DNA from: Sordaria brevicollis
Taxonomy: Eukaryota > Ascomycota > Sordariomycetes > Sordariales > Sordariaceae
Direction of reading: 5' to 3'
NCBI GenBank assembly: GCA_033439795.1
Contig: JAUTDP010000009.1
Location: forward strand, 1,984,001-2,048,000
DNA: 64,000 nucleotides
Below are positions 17,900 through 54,424 of the stretch, piece by piece. Every line of letters begins with the position of its first letter. Position 1 is the stretch's first letter. Position numbers and translations under genes: made by a program. The notes under the pieces were generated by a model that was given only the letters and a program-made list of their open reading frames with translations, did not search any database and was not told the origin of the DNA.

Positions 17900-20800
17900 T
17901 TTAGCTTTCTAATATTTAGAGAGCGCCTTTTATATATTTTCGAAGTACTTTTTAGGTTTTTAAATATTATATTCTACGGGCTACTTTATTTATTTAATTA
18001 AAAACCTCTAATTTATACTTACTTTTTAATAATTTACGATTTTTTTAATTTTTTACTCCTTTTATTTATTATATAGTTCCAATAGTAGTATTTCGTAGTC
18101 TCTATCTTCTTTATTCTTTTAAGGTTCTAATAGGTTAATTAGAAAGACGTTATATATCTAGCTATATTATATCGGTAGGATTACTTAGTACGTTTAGAAG
18201 TTAATTCTTTTTAATATTTTAATTTTAATATACGTAGGTATTAATTTCCTATTTTTAAATCGGAAATTCTTAATTAATAGGTTTATAACATTGCCCGGTT
18301 GGAATTCGATTAGCGTATATTTTTTATTATACCCCTTTTTCTATATTTTTATTGTTTAATTTTAATAGCGTTATATTATTTTATAAATTTCTTTTAATTT
18401 TTGTAATCGCTCCTTTATATTTTAAATTTTAATAGGATTCCGCCCCTCGATATATTCGATTATATATAGGTGGTAGTTATATAAGGTTTTAAATGGCAAA
18501 ACCCCTATAGTTACGTACGTAGAATTATTATACGCGAATTCCGCTTCCGGGAATTCTCTATTTTAAAATATAAGGTTGCCTTTTAAAGTTCGGATATATA
18601 AAGTCTTTTCGATGGTTTAGTATAGGCGTTTTGTTTATTTATCCGTTTACGGGTAGAATGTAGTAAATAATTTTCGTAGGATCCTACGCGTTTTGGTAAA
18701 TTCTTTTTAAAATTCGCTAATAAATAATTTATTTTTATTATTTACGATTTTTAATAATAAGCCGAATTAGTATTCTATATATTTATATAATAGGGACGTT
18801 ATAGAAATTGCATTAAGTATTTTAATAATGGGTATAAATAAGGTTATTTTAGTAAATCGGTTTACGATTATTAGAATAATATTATATATTTTCCCGTCGG
18901 CCTTTTAGTTCGGCGGAAGGTTAGTAATAAAATCGATATTAATTTTTTGGAAAGGTTATTTGGGTATTAGTAAGGATTAGAAGTCTTTATAGGGTCGGTA
19001 TTAGGGTTTTTAAATCCTTTAATATAATTCGTACTTTATAACGTATTTTTAAACGTTTTATATAAGGTTTTCTTAGTGGAATTTCTTTTTAATAAATTTT
19101 AGGATTTTAAGCGTATTTATATAACCGGCCTTTAGGTTATTATAATAAGAGTATAAAATCTCTTTATAGAGTAATTTTTCTTTAGGGATTATTAATTATT
19201 CTTTAAAATAAAGAATCCTTTAGTTATTTAATTTATATCCTCCGATTATAATCCTTTTAGATTAAATAGTCGTTACCCGTTCGGTTAAATTTGGATCCCT
19301 AGGTTAAAGTCCCTTTATAATAGTATAAAGTTCCCGGCTCGTTAAAGGTATTTAAAGGATTTTTCGGTATATTATCTTCTTTGCGACTTTGTGTAGTAAA
19401 ATTTAAAGGAACGCTCCTTTTATCGGTTATATTAGTAAAATATCTTTTATAGTAGTAGCGGACCGCGTTATTCGTTGAATTTATTTAACGAAAGCATAGG
19501 CTATAGATTTCTTTCTATACCGGTACGGGATTTTGGAGTTTAATTACTCTTTGGTTATATTTAGTAATTCTAAAATAAGGTTTAATTTCTTTTAGAAAGT
19601 TAGTAAAATATTGCCGTAGGTTATATCCCCTTTTATATAATTTGGCCTCTTAGATAGATTATTTATTAGATTTATTTTTTTTAATTAGTATTTTATTTTA
19701 AAATCGAATTGAAATAATCGGTAAATTTAGCGAATTAACCTTCTATATAAATTATTCGCCGGCAATTTTATAATATTCTCTAACGCTTTATAGTTTATAA
19801 GTATTGTAAACGGCTTCGGAAATCCTTTTAAATAATATATTTAATAATTTAAGTTGGTTACGATAGTAAATAGCTTTTATTAGCCTATATATTATTATTA
19901 TTCTACGTTTATTAATTTTTTAGAAAAGAACGCTATAGGGTATTAAATATTTTTTATAAATTGGGATAAAATTCCTGAAATAGCTTTTTACGAAGCGTCT
20001 ATTTCAATTTTAATTTTCTTAATAGGGTCTTAGTAACGAAGGATTGGTACCGTTATAAATATTTCTTTTAAAGCTCGGAATATTTTATTAACTTCTTTAA
20101 TTTAATAGAACGCGCCCGATTTCCGCCCGTTTTTATTCCCTTTTAATAAATCGGTAATAGGCCCTATTATATAAGAATATTAGTATATAAACCGTTAGTA
20201 AAAATTAATAAATCCTAAGAATATTTAGATATTATAGAAGGATTTAAGCGTTAATTACTTTTAAATTGCTTTTACCCGTTCGAAATTTATTATTACCCTT
20301 TCCGTAATAATTCGATAGCCGAGGAAGTCGATATAATCTTTATAAAATTCGTATTTAAACGCTTTTATAAAAAGTTGGGTAGTATATAGATATTCGAAGA
20401 TTAAATAAAAGTATTCGTTATATTCTTCTTTAGAGTTCGAATAGATTAAAATATTATTAAAATATATTATATAAATATAGTCGATAAATCTTATAAATAC
20501 TTTATATATATATATTTAGAATATAGCGGGTACGTTTATAAGTTTGAACAGTATTATTATATATTCGAAGTAATTATATTACGTTTTAAAAACGGTTTTC
20601 TATTAATCCTTTTCTTTAATTCGGATCCAATAATACGCTTCGTATAAATTAATTTTAAAAAATATTTTAGCGCCGACTATTCGGTCTATTAATTCGCTAA
20701 TTAATAGTAGTGGGTATCGATTTTTAATAATAATTTTATTTAATCCCCGGTAATCGATATATAATTGTAGCGTATTATCCTTCTTAGGTATAAATAAAAT

Positions 20801-26107: not shown

Positions 26108-26431
26108 TTAACCATTACGACCTTTAATACTATTACTACTATTACCACTTTCTTTCACGACTTTCACGAGTTTTACCACCTTTAATACCATTACCGTTAT
26201 CACCACCTTCGATATTACCAACTTCACCAACTTTACCAATTTTACTACCTTCACCACCTTCACCACCTTTACCACCTTCACTACTTTTAGCCCTATTATT
26301 ACCTTTAGTACTATCGCCGCCATCATTACCTTTAATATCACCAATTTCACTACCTTCACCACCTTCACTACCTTTAGCCCTATTACTACCTTTAATATTA
26401 CCAACTTTATTACCTTTACCACTTTTACCAC
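26108..26431. repeat. ACC/TTC-rich degenerate minisatellite
   Basis: Short units of the type ACCTTCACC and ACCTTTACC are repeated with variation over about 320 bp. The tract keeps many CpA dinucleotides, unlike its surroundings. On the minus strand it gives an open frame of KVV repeats, which I take to be a repeat artefact and not a protein. Confidence 0.7.
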
Positions 26432-26710
26432 TATCCCTAACCTATACCTCCCTTTATAAAGTATACTTAAAGACTATTTATTATTAGCACGGGGAGTAAC
26501 CTAGCTATAATAGTTCCGTAGTTCAAATAGGGGGGACTATACCTCTACCTACCGTACTAATCCCGGATCGACTTCTATTCCTAAACGATTCGGACCCCTA
26601 GACCCGACCCTCGGACCCTTAGACCCGGACCCTTCGCTTCCCTAAACCCGGACTAAAAACCCTACTCTTAACGTAAATTAAACCTATACTACTAATCTAA
26701 CTATAATAAC

Positions 26711-26813
26711 CCGACCGACCAACCGACCGACCGACCGACCGACCGAAATAAAATAAAACCTAAAAAAATACCGACCGACCGACCGACCGACCGACCGACC
26801 GACTATAATAAAA
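26711..26813. repeat. Two (CCGA)n microsatellite arrays
   Basis: CCGA tetranucleotide runs at 26711-26746 and 26771-26813, each followed by a copy of AATAAAATAAAACCTAAAA. The whole 60-bp block appears to be duplicated in tandem. Confidence 0.85.
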
Positions 26814-27455: not shown

Positions 27456-29178
27456 TTAAATTTTTATATTAAAGACGCGGCCGTTAATCCTATTAATTAA
27501 ATTAGTATTATTCCGTTTTTACTTAAAGAGGGGACTCCTTAGGATAATAAATTTTCTAAATAAGGGCCCCTAATAGGGTTTATATATTTAAGGGTATTTA
27601 CTCGTATTAATTTAAATATATTGGAAGTTGAAGTTTATATAGATTTTAGAATTGCGAAAACCGTTATTAATCGATAATTCCTTAATATTTTAAATTATTT
27701 TATATTTACCGAATATTTTATGCGTATTAAAAGAATAGGAGGAAAGCCTATTAAATTAATAAAATAAGTAAAATTTATAATATATTCAATAAGGAAGGAC
27801 GTTTATAGTACTTTTACTTTATTAAAAATAAAGGTAATAAAATAAGTAATAAATAAATTCGAACCGATATTATTATTAATAAACTCCTTCTTATACCCGA
27901 AATAGATTAAAATCGATTATTATAAAGGCGAGGTAATTTTACTATAAGATAATTTTAATATTGCCTTTAACGTTTTAAAATTTCTTTACCGGTATACCTA
28001 TAAAATTATTATAGAGAAGAAAATAATATTAAAGCCGGGAGAGGAACGTATAATACTAATTAATTATATTAACTTTTTTAAAGATTATAATTTCCTATTC
28101 GATTTATTTTACCCCGTTATAATTAATATAATCGTTAATATATACTCCTTACGAATAATCGTAATAAAAAATACGATCGATAAGGATATTTTAATATTAC
28201 GAAAATAAAAGGTTAATATAATTATAAAATATAACGTAGACGGGTATTTCGCTTTAAATTAGTTTAATATTTATAAAATTATATTTATTATTTAAATTTT
28301 ATAAATATTAAATAACGACCCTACCCTAATAGTTAATAAAATTACCGAAATCGTATACTAAATATATTATATCCTTACGAATATCGAAATTAATATCGAC
28401 CTTTAAATTCCTAGAGGTATTAATATTATAGCCGAAGAACCTCTTTAATAAGAAAATTCCTTAAAACCGTCTAATTTACTTAAAATGCCCGATAAGTAAT
28501 TTAACCTTAATATATAAATAGATAATAAAGCGTTTAAAATTATTATTAAGGAAAGAGTCTATATTTTCGCCGGAAGTAAATGCGTATTTTGCGCGCTTAT
28601 TAAATTGGTTATAAAATTTCCGAAATTGTAGAAAGAAAGAAGTTTGGTTAATATACCCGAGGAAGATATAATATAAATATTTTTGGTAAAAGGTTAATAG
28701 AATTATAAAATAACCGCCCGAATATATTTAGTAAATAAGAAGGATTAAATAATAATCGATAAAATTTTTAATACCCTTTATAAATAAAGTAAAATAGTTT
28801 GGGTAAAGTACGCTATTCCCTTCGCTTATTTTATTTTTATAATATAAAGAGAAATTAAAAACGGCCCTAAAGGTTAATCCGTTATTAATTTGCGAATTTT
28901 AAATAGTTTAACGATATCCGATAATTATTTATTCCCTCTATAATACGAAATTATCGCTTTTATATAGGGTAAGGTAATTATAATTATTATCGATATAATT
29001 TTATTCTTTTATTAATTTAAAATTTAGTATAAATATAGAAATCGCTTTATATTAATTATTTACCGGGGTTTAGAATAATCGACGGTCGTTTAAATAGGTT
29101 TTAAAAATATTTTCGTTTATATTTAGAAATTTATAAATATATTCCTTTACGAATATAAGGAATATTATAGAGTATATA
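27456..29178 (+). pseudogene. pol of element B, first part (protease to RT palm), RIP-degraded
   Basis: Continues the frame broken at 6533 and aligns with about 36520-38250 of element A. The RT core is legible at about 28800-29170: a Gly-Pro-Lys-Gly segment, VINLRILNSLTISDNY, and the stretch leading to the active-site Tyr. Trp and Gln codons are TAG/TAA. The frame stops at 29178, where the TRIM-like element splits the active-site YIDD motif after the Tyr-Ile codons. Confidence 0.75.
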
Positions 29179-29298
29179 TGTCACAGGATTATTCCGGGTA
29201 TATAGTGGTGCATTCCGATATTCGTTAGCAAGCGAACATCGTCCTATCTTTTATAGAAGGTTTGGCCTGGCGGTCATTTGCACCACCGTCCTGTCATA
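29179..29298 (+). repeat. 5' LTR of the TRIM-like element
   Basis: 120 bp, 117 identical to the 3' copy. It contains an inverted repeat (CGATATTCG ... CGAACATCG at 29217-29242 here; perfect as CGATGTTCG/CGAACATCG in the 3' copy, 29644-29669) that can form a 9-bp hairpin with an 8-nt loop. Confidence 0.9.
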
Positions 29299-29345
29299 GT
29301 ATGTTCGCTTACCACGGCGGGTTCGATTCCCGGCTAGACCATTTT
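29259..29345 (+). ncRNA. tRNA-like stretch with B box and T-run
   Basis: GGTTTGG (29259-29265) can pair with CTAGACC (29334-29340) as a 7-bp acceptor-like stem with two G-U pairs. Between them are a TGGC...GG stretch like an A box, and the B-box GGTTCGATTCC (29320-29330) inside a T-arm-like CGGG/CCCG stem. An A and then TTTT (29342-29345), a Pol III-type stop, follow. The middle does not fold into a convincing anticodon arm, so this is not called a working tRNA. It begins in the 5' LTR and ends in the internal region. A Pol III-driven or tRNA-derived role is inference. Confidence 0.45.
29301..29314 (+). promoter_or_regulatory. Self-complementary primer-binding site of the TRIM-like element
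   Basis: ATGTTCGCTTACCA starts two bases after the 5' LTR. Its reverse complement matches the element's own LTR (29654-29667, TGGCAAGCGAACAT) at 13 of 14 positions, and the one mismatch is a transition. No match to a tRNA 3' end starting TGG is present at this place. This is the layout of Tf1/sushi-type self-priming, in which the RNA 5' end folds back to prime reverse transcription. If so, transcription should start near LTR position 48. Confidence 0.6.
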
Positions 29346-29606
29346 CGAGGGCGGGTTTTTTCCGTGCTGCGACCGTCGTCCCTGAGCGACACCTTTGAGG
29401 TTCCCGAGAGTAACCTTAGTCTAATCGCCGGAAATAACATATGCAACCGTAGAGTACCGATCCGTTTAGCTTGAATAAGCCCGTTGGAAAGGGGGATACG
29501 TCCGCCTTTCAGGTAGTGCTATATACGGAATCAATCCTGTTCCAACTTTGCGACCGTGGGTCAATCGCCTCTCCTTCGCAGAGCCTCTTGGGGAAGAGGA
29601 AGGTAG

Positions 29607-29726
29607 TGTCACAGGATTATTCCGGGTATATAGTGGTGCATTCCGATGTTCGTTGGCAAGCGAACATCGTCCTATCTTTTATAGAAGGTTTGGCCTGGCG
29701 GTCATTTGCACTACCGTCCTGTCATA
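29607..29726 (+). repeat. 3' LTR of the TRIM-like element
   Basis: 120 bp; carries the unmutated forms at the two G-to-A differences and a C-to-T change near its end. It is preceded by the polypurine tract and followed by the ATATA duplication. Confidence 0.9.
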
Positions 29727-32440
29727 ATATATTAACAATATCGTTATCGCTTCCAATTCGGTTAAGGATTATTTTAAATATTTGGATACTATTTTTTCCC
29801 TCTTCGTATTTAAAAATATTATATTATTATTTAAAAAATTATATTTAAATTATTTTAACGTCGAATTTTTTAATTTTTACGTAAACGGTTTCGGCCTTTC
29901 TATTATTAAGGATAGGATTTAAATTTTTAAGGACCTTATATTTCCAGAAAATTTAAAGGTATTAAAATAATATATCGGTGGAATTAATTTCCTACGGTAT
30001 TTAATTATATATTACGCCTAATTTATTAAACCTTTATAATTTCGTAAAATTATACTTTTCACCGCCGGAAAGAAATTAGGAAAAATTGAGCTAGGTAAAT
30101 TTACGTACTATATAACTTATTATATAAAAATTTATTTTACCCCGATACCGGCGGAATTAACCGTCTTTAAAATATTATAGCGTACTATATACGAAGAAAG
30201 TATAATATTATATTATTTCGATCCCGACTATTTAATTTTCTTATAAATCGATAATTTTTTAAAACGCGGATTCGGCGTAATAATCTTCTATTTAAAAAAC
30301 GGTTATAAATAAATCGAAAGCGCCCCTATTCCTTTATCTTAAGTATTATTTATTATATTTTTAAATAAAGTCTTAATTAAAGTAGAAATTAAATACGGGC
30401 CTTCGGAATTGGAAGTAGCTTACTTAATTTAGGTAGTAAAGAAATTTTATACGTATTTCTATACTTATAATTACTTTATTATAGTTTTAACCGATTATTT
30501 TACAATAAAGGGTATTATAAAATAGATATCCTTATATACTTCTTCTACCGATTATACGAATTAACGTTTAATTAACGCTTCTATATATTTATCGGAATAT
30601 AAATTGAAGGTATTTTATATCCTAGGGAAATTAAATTTTATATTTAACGTATTAAATTGGTTAAAAATTGTCTTTAATAATACTAATTTTAACAGCATCC
30701 TTATTTTAGACGATATATAAACCGAAGATAGAATTATAATCGTAAATAAAATTTAATATTCCTTTTCCGAAACGTAAATAAATCCGAAGTTGCGTAAAGC
30801 TTTTATTTCGTCGTATATTTCGGATATTAAATTTAATAAAATATTAAAATATTTAAAAACTTACCCTAAATATATTTCCGAAGATAAAAACATTATTTTT
30901 TCAAAGCCCGATTATCTTTTCTTTATAAAAAACGGCCTTATTTATAATTAATAAATTAATAAAATAAAAACCTTATACGTTTCTTTTAAGTAAATAAAAA
31001 TAATATTAAAAATTGCCTATAACGATAAATATTATTTTGGTTATAATTATATAATATACGAATTTTAAAAATTATTTTTCGTAAATAAGACCCGCTTAAT
31101 TAAATAATATTTAAAATACTACCCGGTATATTAATTCAACTAGACCGATAAATAATTAATTATCAGCGATTATTAATTAATTAAATTAGAAGAAACCTTT
31201 CCAATAAAAATTATATCCTTTAATTTTATAATTAGATTATTTGAAGTCTTTTTAAAAAATACCCCTTAGTAAATACTTTATTACGAAACCTTTAATTCCT
31301 TTATACTTATTACCGATAAAATATTAAAGAGAATATTATTTATCCTTAAATATAATACGTATACTACTATAAAATAGAATATTATTATTATCCGGCTATT
31401 TTTTTTATACGATTAGGGATTCTTAATTAATATTATTTCCGACCGAAACCGGAAATTTACTTCCCAATTTTAAAAAAGTATATAGACCGCTATAAGAATA
31501 AAGTTATTAATAATTACCGCCTACTATCCTTCCGGCAATAATACCGCTAAGCGTAAAAATTAAATAATTAAAATCGCTATTCGCTTTTATACTTTTACTT
31601 ATAAATTAAAATATAATTAATTATTAATTATTTTATCCTTATAATAGAATTTCAATAGTATATTTATCGAAAATATTAAAACTTCCTTATATAAATATCT
31701 TTTTAATTATAAATTATAAAGCCCCTTTAACGTTAATACTTAATTATAAAATACGTATAAATTTAACAATAATCCCATTATTCGCGACTATTTTTATAAA
31801 GAAATTTAATTTATTATAAATTTCGTTATTATTAATATTAAGGCCCGATACGACGCCTTTTATTAATAATTAGAATTTTAACCCAGTAATAAAGTATTCT
31901 TTAAATTTTATTATAAATATTACCTTCCCGGTTATCCTTCGCGTAAAATTTTATAATAGCGCTCCGAACCGTTTAAAATTCTAAAGAAGGTTAATCGCTT
32001 AATATATCGGCTAAATTTACCTAATAGTATAAAAATATACCCTATTATTTTAATTGCTTATTTAGTACCTATATTTAGAGATATAAATCCCTTTAGTCGC
32101 TTAATACTTCTTTTAAGTCCCGTAAAGGATTCCTAAAGCGATTCGGATAATAATAAAAGTAAACGCTACGAGGTAGAAAAAATCGCCAACTATAAATAAA
32201 TAAATAGAAAGCTTTAGTATTATATTAAATAGAAAGGATATAAGTATTATTTGAACGAATAAAAGGATATTAAAAATTTGGAGAATATAAAGGAAGTAGT
32301 AAAGGATTATTAAAAGTACCGTCCGAATAAACGTAAGAGAGGCGTTCTATAGTCGTATATAAATAGATAAAGGAAAGTTCGCTTTATTAATAAAAAGGAT
32401 AAAAGGCGGCGCTTTCCGAGGATAAAGTGAAGCTATTCCT
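29727..32440 (+). pseudogene. pol of element B, second part (RT end, RNase H, integrase, chromodomain)
   Basis: Resumes with the codons after the active-site Ile: the two Asp have become Asn. In one frame follow FPENLK.LKxYIGGINFLRYL, RNase H (about 30210-30520), integrase (about 31140-31800, with SDRNRKFTS and TAYYPSGN blocks) and a C-terminal chromodomain (about 32170-32310, KRYEVEKIANYK then INRKLxYYIKxKGYKYY and ENIKEVVKDY). Stops are nearly all TAG/TAA at former Gln or Trp codons, and the frame itself is largely kept, which shows point mutation and few indels. A basic tail ends about 32430, before the 3' LTR. Confidence 0.85.
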
Positions 32441-32478: not shown

Positions 32479-32964
32479 TAATACGGAAAGATAGATTATA
32501 TATATATATACTAAATTAATTAATTAAATAGATAGGTATAGTATATTATAGGCGTTATACTTTAATAGGACCGGCTAGCCGGTAGGCCGATAGGCGTATG
32601 CTTAGTAGCCGTCCGGCGGGCGGTCGAGGACCCACCTTAAGGTTGGGTCGGAATCCTTCCATAAAAGGATTCCCCGCAGGCACTAGTCTCAGTTCTCAGA
32701 CCTACCTACCTCCGAAACGGCACCCCCGGGCGCTGCCCCACCACCCCCACTCCAACACCCACACAACCAATCAGCGCCCAGGGATACCATTTCTGCGGTA
32801 TTCGCGGAGACCCACCCAGTTCCTAGGGTGGGGTAGAGTGTCGTTGTGGGGTGGTCTGTGCTCAGAGACTAGCAGGCACTGCCTGCGGCTCGCTTTTCTT
32901 CTTTTTATATCATCTTCTTTTAATATTATAGATTACTACAACGCATCGTAGTATTACCCTATCA
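32479..32964 (+). repeat. 3' LTR of element B, enlarged by a MITE
   Basis: 486 bp, of which 196 bp are the MITE and its 8-bp duplication; the remaining 290 bp equals the 5' LTR. It starts TAATACGG (TG lost to RIP) and ends CCCTATCA. The right half keeps CpA/TpG where the 5' LTR of B has TpA. Confidence 0.9.
32684..32871. mobile_element. hAT-like MITE, 188 bp
   Basis: Bounded by TAGTCTCAGTTCTCAGAC and GTCTGTGCTCAGAGACTA, which match as imperfect inverted repeats (14 of 18), and flanked by the 8-bp duplication GCAGGCAC (32676-32683, 32872-32879). The 5' LTR of B lacks the insert at the same point. An 8-bp duplication with TAG-type ends suits a non-autonomous hAT element. The sequence is GC-rich and shows no RIP. 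An open frame running across it is an artefact. Confidence 0.85.
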
Positions 32965-36599: not shown

Positions 36600-39500
36600 G
36601 AATTATTAAAATAAAACCCGTTTATAAAGTTTATATATTTTAAAATCCTTATTAAAATAAACTTTAATATAAAAGAAATCGAAATTTATATAAACCTTAG
36701 AGCGGTAAAAACCGTAATTGATCGTTAATTTTTAAATATTTTAAAATACTCTATTTTTACCGAATATTCTATATAAATTAAAGGAATTAGAGGGAAGTCT
36801 ATTCAATTTATTAAGTAAATTACTTTTATAATTTATTTAATAAAAAAAAATATATATAGCGCTCCGATATTATTTAAAATAAAAGCCGTAGGATAAATTA
36901 TAAATAAATTAAATCCGAACTTTTTATTAGCGAATTCTTTTTTATATTCTAAATAAATAAAGATTAATTATTATAAAGCCGAAGTAATTTTACTATAAAA
37001 TAATTTTAATACTTCCTTTAACGTTTTAAAACCTCCGTATTATTATTTACGCAAAATTATAACGGATAAGAAAGTTATTCTAAGGCTAAATAAAAAGAAA
37101 ATAATTCTAATTAATTATATCGACTTCCCTAAAAATTGTAATTTTTTTTTTAATTCTTTATATTAGGCCGTTTTTAACGTAATCGTCGATACCCAATCCC
37201 TTCGAATAATCCTTATAAAGAATATTATAAATAAAAATATAATTATTTTAAAAAAGTAGAAGGTTAATATAATTACCGAATATAATATTATTAATTATTT
37301 CGTTTCCAATTAGATAAAAATATACGAAATAACTTTCGCTATATAAATTTTATAAATAATAAATAACGACCCGATTTTACCCCTTAATAAGGCTATAGAA
37401 ATAATTTATTAAATATATTATATTCTTATTAACGTCGAAATCAATATCGACCCTAACCTAACTAAAGCCTTAAAATTTACTAATACTATTACTAACGCTC
37501 TACCGGACGAAGCTAAATAAGAACCCTCCGAAATTAATTTATTAAATTTATTTAAAATACCCGATAAATAATCTAACTTTAGTATATATATAAATAATAA
37601 AACCCCCGAATTCGTTACCGAAGAAGGAATATATATTTATACTAGGAGTAAATATATATCGCGCGCACTCGCTAAATTAATAGCGAAATTCCCTAAATTG
37701 TAGAAAGAAGGAGGGTTAATTAATATAATTAAAGAAAATATAATACGCGTTTTTTTAATAGAAGGATAATAAAATTATAAGGTTATTATTCGAATATATT
37801 TAATTAGTAAAAAGGATTAGGCTATTATTAATAAAATTTTTAATATTTTCTATAAATAAAGTAAAATAAATTAAATCAAATACGCTACGCTATTTATTCA
37901 CCCTATATTCGTTATATAAAAAAAGACGAAAAATAATCCTAAAGGACGCTTAGTAATCGATTTATATATTTTTAATATTTTTACTATCCCCAATAACTAC
38001 CCCTTACCGCTTTAATATAAAATTATCGTATTTATACGTAATAAAATTATTATAATAATTATTAATGTAATATTATTCTTCTATTAATTTAGGGTATAAT
38101 ATAAATATTAAGACCGGTTTATATTAATAATATATAAAAGATTAGAATAATTTATAATAGTATAAATAGAATTTAAAAATATTCTTACCTACGTATAATA
38201 ATTTATAAATATATTTTTTTATAAATATAAAGACTATTATAGGGTATATATCGACGATATTATAATTATATCTAATTCTATCGATGATTATTTAAAATAT
38301 TTCGACGTTATTTTTATTTTATTCGTATTAAAAAATATCGTTTTATTATTTAAAAAATTATATTTCGGCTACCTTAACGTCGAATTCTTAAAATTTCACG
38401 TTAATAGCTTCGGGCTCTCTATAATTAAGGATTATATTTAAATATTTAAAAATTTTACCTTCCCAATAATTTTAAAATTTTCGAATAATATATCGGCGGA
38501 ATAAGGTTTTTAAAATATTTAATTATTTATTACACTTAATTAGTAAAACCGCTTTAATTTTACAAAATTACCTTTCTCGTAATAAAATATAAAGTAAATA
38601 AAATAAAGGTCGGTAAATTAACGCGCCGGATAATATATTATACGAAAATATTCTTTACGCTTACTTTAACGGAAAGGGCCGTTTTTGATATACTCTAACG
38701 CATTATATATAATAATTAGATTATTTTCTATTATTTCGACCTTAATAAATTCGTCTTTTTTTAAATTAACAGCTCTTTAGAACGTAAGTTTAATATTATA
38801 ATTTTCTATTTAAAGGATAAATATTAATAAATCGAAGGTACCTTTATACCTTCCCTATAAATTTTATTAATTATATTTTTAAATAAAATTTTAATTAAAG
38901 TAGAAATTAAATACAATCCGTCGGAATTAGAAATCGCTTATTTAATATAAGTAATAAAGAAGCTCTATACTTAATTATACGCGTATAACCTACCTATTAT
39001 TATTTTAACCGACTATTCTATAATTAAAGGTATCGTCGAATAAACTTCTCTCTATATTTTATTAATTAATTATATTAATTATCATTTAATAAATATATTA
39101 ATTTACCTTTCCAAATATAAATTAAAGGTTTTTTATATCTTTAGTAAATTTAATTTCGTACCCAATACTTTAAACCGTTTTAAAACTATTATAAGTAATA
39201 AGAATTAAGAAAGTACTTTAATTTTCGACGATATTTGGATAAAAGATTATATTATATAAATAAACGATATTTAATATTCCTTTTTAAAAACCTAAATAAA
39301 CCTAAGCTACGTAAGGACTTTATTTTAAAATACATATCCGATAGTAAATTCGCGAAGGTTATAAAATATTTAAAAAATTATTTTAAAAAGGTCTTTAAAA
39401 ATAGAAATATTATATTTTCGAAGCCCGGCTATCCTTTCTTTATATAAAATAATCTTATTTATAATTAATAAATAAATAAAACGAAGGCATTTTATATCCT

Positions 39501-51911: not shown

Positions 51912-54424
51912 ATGAAGCGCTCCCTGAAATGGTTTGGTTCCAAAACCAGCCCCAGTACCAGTCCCGAGCCTGCGGGGCCCTCCGCTGGGCCCGGTGGAAA
52001 TAATAGTTATCGCGCATCGCCTTCCTCTGTTTCTGCAGCTCCCAGGAACCCATCGCCTTCCGACTCGACATCGGACTCACCCTCTTCCCTTCTTCACCCA
52101 TCCTCGCCGTCGCCGTCTCCGACTCCCCAACCGCCGACCCCTCGCGATACCGTCTTTCCTCGATCCGATCTTTCGCTACCCGCTGCCTCGAAACCCATTG
52201 ACATTGCCGTCTCGCATCGTCGATCCACCGCATCCATCTCACCGGTTGAAGACAATCCCATCACTTTTCCATCCCACCACCTCGACGACGATCTTGACAT
52301 CGACTGGGACCAAGGCCCCTTTCCCGACGACGCAGGTTTCGATTCTGACGTCGACATGACCGCCGGTCAACATTTCGACTCGGCCTTGAGCCGCAGTCGA
52401 CAGGAGTCTTTCTTGGGCACTGGCGCAAAACCCATATCCATGGCGAACCCTAATCGCGACCACGCCAACCGCATCCGTCGCGAAAGTATGGCCGGCAGTC
52501 TTAGAGCAGGCAGTCTTATGGCGGGGAGTCTTATGGGTAACGGTATGAGCTGGGGCGGAATTTCTGTCGGAAGTTTTATTCGTGAAGAGTAAGTCGTCTC
52601 CGCCTTTTTTTGGGTCCAGGGGTGTTCTTGTGTCCTCTGCGTGAGAGGTGGGCAGATATCTTGGGCATTGAGGCTTTCGTAGGGTGGGATTGAATTGCCG
52701 TGGAGCGCTATCCGCTGGTTGTTTTGATCGAAGCTGACTTGTTTTGGTGGCGTTAGCATGATGATGACAGGCACTTCGCCGTATCTAACGCACCAGTCTC
52801 CCTCGTTCCATTCTTCATCGTATATCCCAAAACTCGAGGCCAATTTCATGCGCGATTTCACCTGCTGCGAGAGGACATGGCCCACGCTCCATGACCTTCT
52901 TCAACATTATGAGGAGAACCATCACGCCACCGCTGCGCCCAACACATCCAACCAGAACCTTAATACCTTTGGCGCAAACCCAGGGAACGCACGCGGCCCT
53001 GCCAGCCGGGCTACCCCAACACCGGCAGTGGGTAGAGCCCAGCCAGGGGCCCAGGCGATGAACGGGTACCAAGGTCAGCGTCATTTGAGTGTTGCTGGCG
53101 CGGGGATGGGCCTCGGCGGTATTGGCCAGATGATGCGGCAGCAACAGGTAGCTCCAGCTGTCCAGAAAATGACCTCCATGTCACATATGAACGATGACAT
53201 GGATACAGTCGGAGAAATGGAGCTTGACGAGACCGTTGGACCTATGGAGATGGACGATAATCAGCGGACAATTCAGCAAACTCGGCAATTGTTTGGGCAG
53301 CAGCAGCGTCCTCAACTTCACCTTAACAGTTCTGGGCTTCCGCATCAGGCTTTGCGCACTTCTCAGCCCCCAACGCCTGCTGCAGTCAGCTTCGGTTTCC
53401 AGAATAACCCGACTGTCTCGTCTGTCAACACGCCTACCTTGACAACACAAGGAGGTCTGCCGCAGCGGGGGCAGTTTGGCCAGGAAGATGACAACGGTGA
53501 CGACATGTCTGGAATGCCCAAGATGATGAACCTAGGCGGCATGGGCATGAATGGCGGACAGCTCGGAGGGCTGGCAGGGAACTTGGCTTTCGGAGCTCTG
53601 GGAACGATTGACGATCCTGCGAAGAGGCTGTATAGCCCTGGTGGCACGCAGCAGATGACAAGCCAGCAACGAGCGTTCGATGCTCAAATGCAGATGCAGC
53701 AGCAATTGCAGCAGCATCTGGCGTCGATGAACCTCGATCTGAACCAGCTTGCTCCGGGTACTGATCCTGCTCTGCTTTTGCAGCAGATGACTGCGCTCAT
53801 GATGCCGCCGACAGAAGAGCATAAGCCTTTCCGCTGTCCCGTCATTGGATGCGAGAAGGCATACAAGAACCAGAATGGTCTGAAGTAAGTTTTTTCCCCC
53901 GAGGTGTTTCTTACTGAAGTGGGATTTGTTTGCCCGCTGCAGAAATTTTCTTTGGTCGGCCACCAGCGCCAACCAACCCCCATACTCCCGCTTTCCCCAA
54001 CTGCATTCCTTCCGAAAAGTCCCACTAACAATCGAACCAGGTACCACAAGACCCATGGACACTCGACGCAGCAATTGCATGAGAACGGCGACGGTACCTT
54101 CTCGATTGTCAATCCAGAAACGAGCACGCCTTACCCCGGTACCCTGGGTATGGAGAAGGAGAAGCCCTTCAAGTGCGACGTTTGTGGCAAGCGCTACAAG
54201 AACTTGAACGGTCTCAAATACGTAAGTCGCTTTACGCCCATTATCATTCGTACACGCAGTGATGCTAACGGCTTCAACTACAGCACAAGCAACACTCGCC
54301 CATGTGCGACCCGGAAATGAGAGCCCAGCACCAGAACCTCATCTCGACCATGATGTCCAACCCAGCTGCCCTCATCGCTTTCCAGCAAAACCTGCCAAAC
54401 ATCAACGAAGATGTCATGTTGTAG
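51912..54424 (+). CDS. sfp1: Sfp1-type split C2H2 zinc-finger transcription regulator
   Basis: Four exons: 51912-52588, 52757-53884, 54041-54221, 54284-54424. The introns (168, 156 and 62 bp) start GTAAGT and end AG, with CTGAC/CTAAC branch sites; the joined frame gives 708 residues. The start is in CAGCCATGAAG; an in-frame ATG lies 91 codons upstream, but that stretch looks like leader. The N-terminus is Ser/Pro-rich and the middle Gln/Met-rich. A degenerate finger is at 262-281 (CC...H...H). Two C-terminal fingers follow: C586-x4-C591-x12-H604 (YKNQNGLKYH) and C647-x2-C650-x12-H663 (YKNLNGLKYH), about 55 residues apart, the arrangement that gives split-finger protein 1 its name. Yeast Sfp1 activates ribosome-biogenesis genes in response to nutrients; the same role here is inferred. 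Each finger is cut by an intron after NGLK or NGLKY. Confidence 0.85.

What the first reader, a model, noticed from the sequence alone, without database searches (positions are those of the whole stretch)
29179..29726. Self-priming TRIM-like mini-retrotransposon that escaped RIP
A 548-bp element has 120-bp LTRs, an ATATA duplication, a polypurine tract and a 14-nt primer site just inside the 5' LTR that is complementary (13/14) to its own LTR. Self-priming is known from Tf1/sushi-type full-length elements; I am not aware of it as a described feature of a fungal TRIM, but cannot check. Its LTR differences (3 of 120) are all RIP-type, yet CpA/TpG are otherwise intact amid saturated RIP. RIP is known to need several hundred bp of homology, so small size may protect it.
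Basis: partly seen in the sequence, partly recalled or inferred. Interest (0 to 1): 0.88.

Follow-up and report, generated by a model that had tools for sequence, protein, structure and literature searches.

The report
Self-priming miniature retrotransposon in a fungus
A 548-base gene-less jumping element, present in many copies in this fungal genome, appears to start copying itself with a short piece of its own RNA instead of a borrowed transfer RNA, which has been known mainly for much larger elements.

Summary
The element is real: LTRs 29179-29298 and 29607-29726, ATATA duplication, purine tract, no large ORF. It belongs to a family in this genome: 16 copies with an internal region (subfamilies A 7, B 8, C 1; lower bound) plus LTR-only places. 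14 of 16 have perfect, mutually different 5-bp duplications; empty sites exist, one inside this window. The self-complementarity holds and co-varies: AAGCGAACAT/ATGTTCGCTT (A), AAGCAGAACAT/ATGTTCTGCTT (B, 11 nt as in Tf1), AGCAGAATTA/TAATTCTGCT (C). The primer starts 29-31 nt after a TATA box in 14 of 14 copies tested. A primer:site helix plus a U5 stem-loop is the consensus fold of 15 leaders, with compensatory changes that RIP cannot make. No tRNA match was seen in a partial tRNA set. 'Escaped RIP' is not right: all 92 LTR-LTR differences are transitions, 72 in RIP context. A Tf1/sushi-like chromovirus is the likely kind of helper, but none is proven. Transcription start and priming are inferred. 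Verdict: a TRIM that self-primes, a new variant of a known kind.

The parts
29174..29178 (+). target-site duplication, left copy (ATATA)
29179..29298 (+). 5' LTR, 120 bp, TGTCACAGG...CCTGTCATA
   Evidence: boundaries fixed by 5-bp duplications in 14 copies
29199..29205 (+). TATA box (TATATAG), starting 31 nt upstream of the primer segment
   Evidence: 29-31 nt in 14 of 14 copies tested
29216..29241 (+). near-palindrome that straddles the predicted transcript start
   Evidence: I1
29230..29239 (+). self-primer AAGCGAACAT, predicted 5' end of the RNA
29243..29260 (+). leader hairpin P2
   Evidence: single-sequence fold of this copy; not part of the consensus fold
29263..29296 (+). U5 stem-loop P3: 29263-29266 with 29293-29296, 29269-29274 with 29285-29290
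29299..29300 (+). 2-nt spacer GT between LTR end and primer site
   Evidence: sequence
29301..29310 (+). primer-binding site ATGTTCGCTT (extended 13/14 match to 29314)
29319..29331 (+). T-arm / B-box-like GGGTTCGATTCCC, conserved as GGTTCRATTCC
   Evidence: 14 of 14 copies tested, RIP-tolerant pattern; cmscan tRNA-Sec 19.5 bits, below the cut-off of 47
29584..29599 (+). hairpin CCTCTT-GGGG-AAGAGG overlapping the polypurine tract
   Evidence: sequence comparison by eye
29590..29603 (+). polypurine tract GGGGAAGAGGAAGG
   Evidence: sequence
29607..29726 (+). 3' LTR (primer copy at 29658-29667)
29727..29731 (+). target-site duplication, right copy (ATATA)
38158..38350 (+). paralogous RIPed repeat carrying the empty site

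Best explanation
The element is a non-coding miniature LTR retrotransposon (TRIM) that primes its own reverse transcription. RNA polymerase II starts about 30 nt downstream of the LTR TATA box, so the RNA begins with the 10-11 nt primer segment. That 5' end folds back onto the primer site 2 nt inside the 5' LTR, closing a junction that holds a U5 stem-loop. A reverse transcriptase/RNase H supplied in trans, most likely by a Tf1/sushi-type chromovirus, would cut the RNA after the primer and extend it; an integrase would trim 2 nt and insert the DNA with a 5-bp duplication. Shown here: anatomy, past mobility, copy number, co-variation, consensus fold. Inferred: transcription start, cleavage, priming, trimming and the identity of the helper.
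For: Mobility: 14 of 16 copies have perfect and mutually different 5-bp duplications; a joined-flank probe from copy L019 matches 15 other loci without a gap; an empty site lies in the window. Primer: one representative of each subfamily complements its own LTR over 10, 11 and 10 nt, swapped combinations over 4-8 nt. RNAalifold on 15 leaders gives the primer:site helix and the U5 stem-loop; 94.6% of 294 cells are paired, against 34-48% with slid partners, and 0 of 500 shuffles reach any of the five measures. The changes at columns 10 and 11 (A-U to U-A, U-A to A-U; subfamily C) and the extra A:T pair of B and C at column 5 cannot come from C-to-T RIP. Geometry: TATA to primer 29-31 nt in 14 of 14. 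The 11-nt match of B equals the Tf1 primer length (PMC7175516, passage). In three representatives no TGG starts in the first 17 internal nt, and the best exact complement to 16 tRNA loci is 6 nt, as in shuffles. A chromovirus-like element of the same genome (RVT_1, RNase H and H2C2 above, rve and Chromo below the Pfam cut-offs) has a TATA box 30 nt before TACGATT, complementary to 7 nt at its own LTR end.
Against: No RNA data. Folded singly, the primer pairs with the site (8 nt or more) in 12 of 14 leaders that stop 20 nt inside, but in only 8 of 14 that run 75 nt inside. In four copies with RIP-type changes the exact match is weak: 1131 (L026), 105 (L004), 96 (L025) and 19 (L022) of 2000 shuffles reach it. 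Changes at columns 4 and 9 are RIP-prone on both sides and prove nothing. The LTR palindrome also complements the primer, and in three of five A copies (L003, L005, L006) over a longer run than the site, 11 against 10 nt. Subfamily C rests on one full copy. The LTR ends are TG...TA, not TG...CA. No helper with the same LTR or primer site was found (whose pattern fits B only). The chromovirus has stops; its site also matches 8 nt elsewhere in its 3' LTR, and the single fold I made, with the 3' LTR sequence, pairs that segment and not the TATA-spaced one.
Confidence: 0.75

Rival explanations
1. The complementarity serves an RNA or DNA structure (a palindromic regulatory or dimerisation site whose arm is repeated a third time inside the element), while a tRNA or tRNA half not tested here primes reverse transcription.
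For: The LTR palindrome itself differs between subfamilies while staying self-complementary, and in three A copies it is the longer match. Only 16 of 63 listed tRNA loci were compared, the 63 being those scored of 2243 candidates. Most fungal Helenus TRIMs use anticodon-loop tRNA primers (PMC10886601, Results part 1 of 2 and passages).
Against: Columns 10-11 change together with the primer site but not with the palindrome arm in subfamily C (sequences); in the eight B copies the palindrome run is 5-9 nt, the primer-site run 8-11. The site lies 2 nt from the LTR end, where a primer site belongs, and its partner lies at the TATA-predicted RNA 5' end in 14 of 14.
Confidence: 0.17
2. A TRIM with an RNA polymerase III promoter (Helenus/TRIMp3-like): the LTR holds an A box (TTTGGC...) and the internal region a B box (GGTTCRATTCC), so the RNA is a tRNA-like polymerase III transcript.
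For: The B-box-like motif is kept in 14 of 14 copies tested; the window copy shares 13 nt with two fetched tRNA loci of identical sequence and gives a weak tRNA-Sec match, 19.5 bits. Some LTRs fit an A-box consensus (recalled) by eye.
Against: The match is below the Rfam cut-off of 47; the elements in L004, L020 and L027 give no match at E<=1 (a larger search space). The A-box region varies as half of the U5 stem-loop. In Helenus the tRNA-like sequence lies in the LTR.
Confidence: 0.06
3. Not a transposon: a segmental tandem duplication or assembly artefact.
For: None beyond the direct repeat itself.
Against: 16 dispersed copies, 14 different 5-bp duplications and empty sites.
Confidence: 0.01

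Closest known systems
Tf1/sushi-type chromoviruses (Tf1, Tf2, Tj1, Tosmo1-3)
   Same: RNA 5' end complementary to a primer site just inside the 5' LTR; 11 nt in Tf1 and in subfamily B; further duplexes between LTR and sequence next to the primer site (passages of PMC7175516, PMC10085805, PMC4600332).
   Different: Those are full-length elements with Gag and Pol; here about 0.5 kb without coding capacity. In the fission-yeast set the LTR always ends in CA; here it ends in TA.
TRIM (terminal-repeat retrotransposon in miniature)
   Same: Under 1 kb, direct repeats of 100-250 bp, non-autonomous, polypurine tract (definition in PMC6934838, passages). TRIMs are reported from an ascomycete, Cochliobolus heterostrophus (PMC4112212, passages).
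   Different: The definition has a primer site complementary to a tRNA; here it is complementary to the element's own LTR. The Cochliobolus paper's main text has no hit for 'PBS' or 'primer binding'.
Helenus / TRIMp3 (fungal tRNA-like TRIMs)
   Same: Small fungal TRIMs with 5-bp duplications and a B-box-like motif (PMC10886601: abstract, Results part 1 of 2, passages).
   Different: Helenus carries its tRNA-like sequence in the LTR and uses tRNA primers, in fungi mostly anticodon loops; among fungi it is reported from Pucciniales and some Agaricomycetes; [quoted passage not shown]
Fungal GalEa Copia elements with a Conserved Hairpin Site
   Same: Fungal LTR elements without a tRNA-type primer site, with structure at the LTR junction (PMC5445492, passages).
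   Different: There no U5 sequence complementary to the hairpin site was found; here the site complements the LTR.
Plant Tcn1 and TAR (Houba, Osr-1) lineages
   Same: Predicted self-priming (PMC6317226, passages).
   Different: Plant Gypsy and Copia lineages defined by polyprotein domains, not miniature elements.

Membership tests
TRIM | two direct terminal repeats of about 100-250 bp, total below 1 kb | tested here: met
   LTR 104-120 bp, total 515-548 bp in 14 copies
TRIM | no coding capacity for Gag/Pol | tested here: met
   longest stop-free stretch in the window copy 91 codons; not searched against protein families
TRIM | primer site complementary to a tRNA | tested here: not met
   best exact complement 6 nt in 16 tRNA loci, as in shuffles (three representatives, partial tRNA set); complementary to own LTR instead
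TRIM | polypurine tract next to the 3' LTR | tested here: met
   14 purines in the window copy; weaker in B, AAAGATGAGG before TAG
TRIM | integrase-type insertion with short target duplication | tested here: met
   5 bp in 14 of 16 copies; empty sites
Tf1/sushi self-priming | RNA 5' end complementary to the primer site | tested here: inconclusive
   complementarity and co-variation met; that it is the RNA 5' end rests on a TATA box at 29-31 nt, not on RNA
Tf1/sushi self-priming | two further duplexes between LTR and primer-site neighbours | tested here: inconclusive
   U5 stem-loop ending 4 nt before the primer site, 95.0% and 89.3% of cells paired; no duplex on the 3' side of the site was shown
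Tf1/sushi self-priming | encodes a chromovirus polyprotein | tested here: not met
   longest stop-free stretch 91 codons; a helper would be needed
Tf1/sushi self-priming | RNase H cut after the primer | not testable with these tools
   needs biochemistry
Helenus/TRIMp3 | tRNA-derived sequence inside the LTR | tested here: not met
   no tRNA match at E<=1 in the elements of L004, L020, L027 or the solo LTR of L008; the weak match in the window copy spans LTR and internal region

The most novel reading that the evidence does not exclude
The first self-priming TRIM lineage: a leader of about 80 nt that holds the cis-information for tRNA-free priming and has passed through at least three primer sequences while primer and site stayed matched. 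The reason would be that the site is recopied from the primer in each round of reverse transcription, so new primers fix themselves and the element need not share its helper's primer.
Probability: 0.5. Interest if true: 0.75.

Novelty: new variant of a known kind. Interest (0 to 1): 0.62.

Why it matters
TRIMs are usually defined by a tRNA primer site. A self-priming TRIM would show that tRNA-free priming can be reduced to a non-coding element of about half a kilobase and used in trans. It offers a natural minimal substrate for asking what an RNase H/reverse transcriptase needs to recognise a self-primer, and how primer sequences evolve. Annotation that requires a tRNA-type primer site would miss such elements. 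The copies also show that elements of about 520-550 bp collect RIP-type mutations.

Tried and rejected
Partner search: an LTR query (E<=1) returned 20 places, all in family copies. An LTR-end plus primer-site pattern in the B form (<=1 mismatch) returned 9 places: the eight B copies and one doubtful site at C26:817257, where one search found only a 36-nt match; the reversed control gave 1. The RVT_1 match with the fewest stops of the 150 scored (of 534 candidates) lies in a chromovirus-like element (L069/L070) with different LTRs. Two further RT loci (L071, L072; 5.3-5.6 kb, perhaps too short to hold both LTRs) gave no LTR pair. MAFFT alignment A1 misplaced the primer site of subfamily A, so leaders were recut to end at the site and realigned (A2); the covariation counts use A2, in which six A rows have a gap at column 5. 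L007 (5' LTR interrupted) was left out of A2. L002 (start of 5' LTR missing) is in A2 but, like L007, not in the LTR-pair, TATA and shuffle counts, which cover 14 of 16 copies. A tRNA origin of the internal T-arm motif was considered and left open. No collection of fungal DNA was on hand and the viral and prokaryote collections were not searched, so the distribution of the family is unknown. That no self-priming TRIM is described rests in an open-access library; the 1997 note on shared self-priming (PMC1369541) is not held.

Full report
What is there. The window lies in a 53-Mb genome (G000:C27:1984001-2048000). An SFP1-like reading frame at 52758-53888 is closest, among named proteins, to Podospora didyma (75% identity), so the host is probably a fungus of the Sordariales (order recalled). 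The element at 29179-29726 has LTRs of 120 bp (3 differences), the duplication ATATA, a purine tract and no stop-free stretch above 91 codons. It interrupts a RIP-saturated repeat whose paralogue 9 kb away in the same window keeps the empty site.

Family. Two searches of the same genome gave 16 copies with an internal region: A, L001-L007; B, L019-L026; C, L027 (the tool calls its counts lower bounds). 14 of the 16 have perfect 5-bp duplications, all different; of the two others, L002 lacks the start of its 5' LTR and L007 has a foreign LTR end inside its 5' LTR. LTR-only places were also found, among them L008 with CCGTC on both sides, read by eye, and L089-L091, whose ends were not worked out. 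The flanks of L019 occur joined, without the element, at 15 other loci. LTR pairs are 84.1-100% identical in 14 copies, so some insertions are recent.

Primer and site. The LTR ends in CATA or a RIP variant, followed by two bases and then the primer site. In A the site ATGTTCGCTT complements AAGCGAACAT; in B, ATGTTCTGCTT complements AAGCAGAACAT; in C, TAATTCTGCT complements AGCAGAATTA. Swapping sites and LTRs between one representative of each subfamily leaves 4-8 nt. Within 14 copies the longest exact match was 5-14 nt; at most 4 of 2000 shuffles reached it in 10 copies, but 19, 96, 105 and 1131 did in L022, L025, L004 and L026, which carry RIP-type changes there. The primer segment begins 29, 30 or 31 nt after a TATA-like box in 14 of 14 copies.

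Leader structure. RNAalifold on 15 leaders (14 copies plus L002) proposes the primer:site helix (11 pairs) and a 4-bp and a 5-bp stem of a U5 stem-loop. 94.6% of 294 cells are paired, 9 of 20 pairs show changes on both sides, and no shuffle of 500 reaches any of five measures; slid partners give 34-48%. Relatedness weakens the shuffles, so I lean on single events: the extra A:T pair of B and C, the two transversion pairs of C, and the re-paired inner stem of the window copy (GGCGGT/ACCGTC against CCTAG/CTAGG). Changes at columns 4 and 9 are RIP-prone and are not counted as support. A hairpin directly after the primer also differs between copies while staying paired by eye (CCTAT/ATAGG, CTACC/GGTAG, CCATC/GATGG), but the consensus fold did not include it. 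Single-sequence folds show the primer:site helix (8 nt or more) in 12 of 14 leaders ending 20 nt inside the element and in 8 of 14 ending 75 nt inside. The LTR palindrome competes for the same segment: with G-U pairs its run is 4-11 nt in A, 5-9 in B and 8 in C, against 7-10, 8-11 and 10 for the site; in three of five A copies the palindrome is longer.

Mechanism. Tf1 RNA begins with 11 bases complementary to its primer site and is cut by RNase H between bases 11 and 12 (PMC7175516, passage); further duplexes join LTR and primer-site neighbours (PMC10085805, passages). The element has much of this anatomy in 0.5 kb. By analogy with retroviral replication (recalled), plus-strand synthesis copies the primer into the new site, which would keep both matched through primer changes. 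The two bases between LTR and site would be trimmed by integrase (inferred). A helper is needed. The RVT_1 match with the fewest stops of the 150 scored belongs to an element with a 5-bp duplication read by eye, interrupted frames, RNase H and H2C2 domains, and rve (21.2 bits, cut-off 32.6) and Chromo (24.5, cut-off 25.1) matches just or well below the cut-offs. Its TATA box lies 30 nt before TACGATT, complementary to AATCGTA at its own LTR end. Against this, the site also matches TTACGATT elsewhere in the 3' LTR, and the one fold made, with that LTR, pairs the latter.

tRNA. In L001, L020 and L027 no TGG starts in the first 17 internal nt; the best exact complement of the first 25 nt to 16 fetched tRNA loci (14 distinct sequences, of 63 listed, of 2243 candidates) was 6 nt, against a shuffle mean of 6.5-6.6. 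The internal region carries a T-arm/B-box-like motif in 14 of 14 copies. Its role is unknown; a polymerase III promoter is a rival I hold unlikely.

RIP. All 92 LTR-LTR substitutions in 14 copies are transitions, with no gap and no transversion; 72 are in CpA or TpG context by a rule that accepts the context in either LTR. (CpA+TpG)/(ApC+GpT) is 0.86 in the window copy, 0.28-1.22 over 14 copies, 0.12 and 0.21 in the window flanks and 1.23 in the genic part of the window. So the copies are RIPed to varying degree and the window copy is younger than its host repeat. A MITE-like insertion of about 0.2 kb at 32685-32871, with five further near-full-length copies at 95-97% identity, fits a protective effect of small size, but age was not controlled.

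Novelty. In the library searched I found self-priming described for full-length elements. The bivalve TRIM paper cites such elements when discussing its own TRIMs, which lack a clear primer site, and proposes no clear mechanism (PMC6934838, passages). I saw no TRIM shown or proposed to self-prime by matched LTR and site (listings; passages as cited). Most subscription papers are not held.

Noticed in passing
window 32685-32871: GC-rich MITE-like insertion of about 0.2 kb with the 9-nt GCAGGCACT on both sides (32676-32684, 32872-32880) and imperfect terminal inverted repeats; 40 matches in the genome, five others near full length at 95-97% identity, many covering only one half; missing from the paralogue at 2568-2963.
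   Followed up: partly
window 29320-29330 and homologous places: GGTTCRATTCC, a B-box/T-loop-like motif, is kept in 14 of 14 copies tested (RIP-tolerant) while its neighbours diverge, including the acceptor-like 3' arm.
   Followed up: partly
window 29584-29599 and homologous places: A hairpin next to the polypurine tract has different stems in A (CCTCTT/AAGAGG, CCCCTT/AAGGGG), B (GGAAT/ATTCC) and C (GAAGTT/AACTTC), as if its pairing were kept (by eye).
   Followed up: no
window 29199-29260: The LTR palindrome is flanked by TATA-like boxes on both strands (TATATAG on +, TATAAAAG on - in several copies), a possible bidirectional promoter (by eye).
   Followed up: no
L007, 5' LTR: A foreign LTR end (...GGCTCAGCCGTGACA) interrupts the 5' LTR of this copy: a nested insertion.
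   Followed up: no
L008:708-2002: A solo LTR of the family sits among tRNA-like genes with a shared sequence; ARAGORN calls three, Rfam one above its cut-off.
   Followed up: partly
window 26215-26803: C-rich low-complexity stretch with strong GC skew (ACCACCTTC-like, TCGGACCCC and CCGA units) inside AT-rich DNA.
   Followed up: no
window 20309-20791 (-): Reverse-transcriptase remnant with four stops (G000:C27:2004309-2004791).
   Followed up: no
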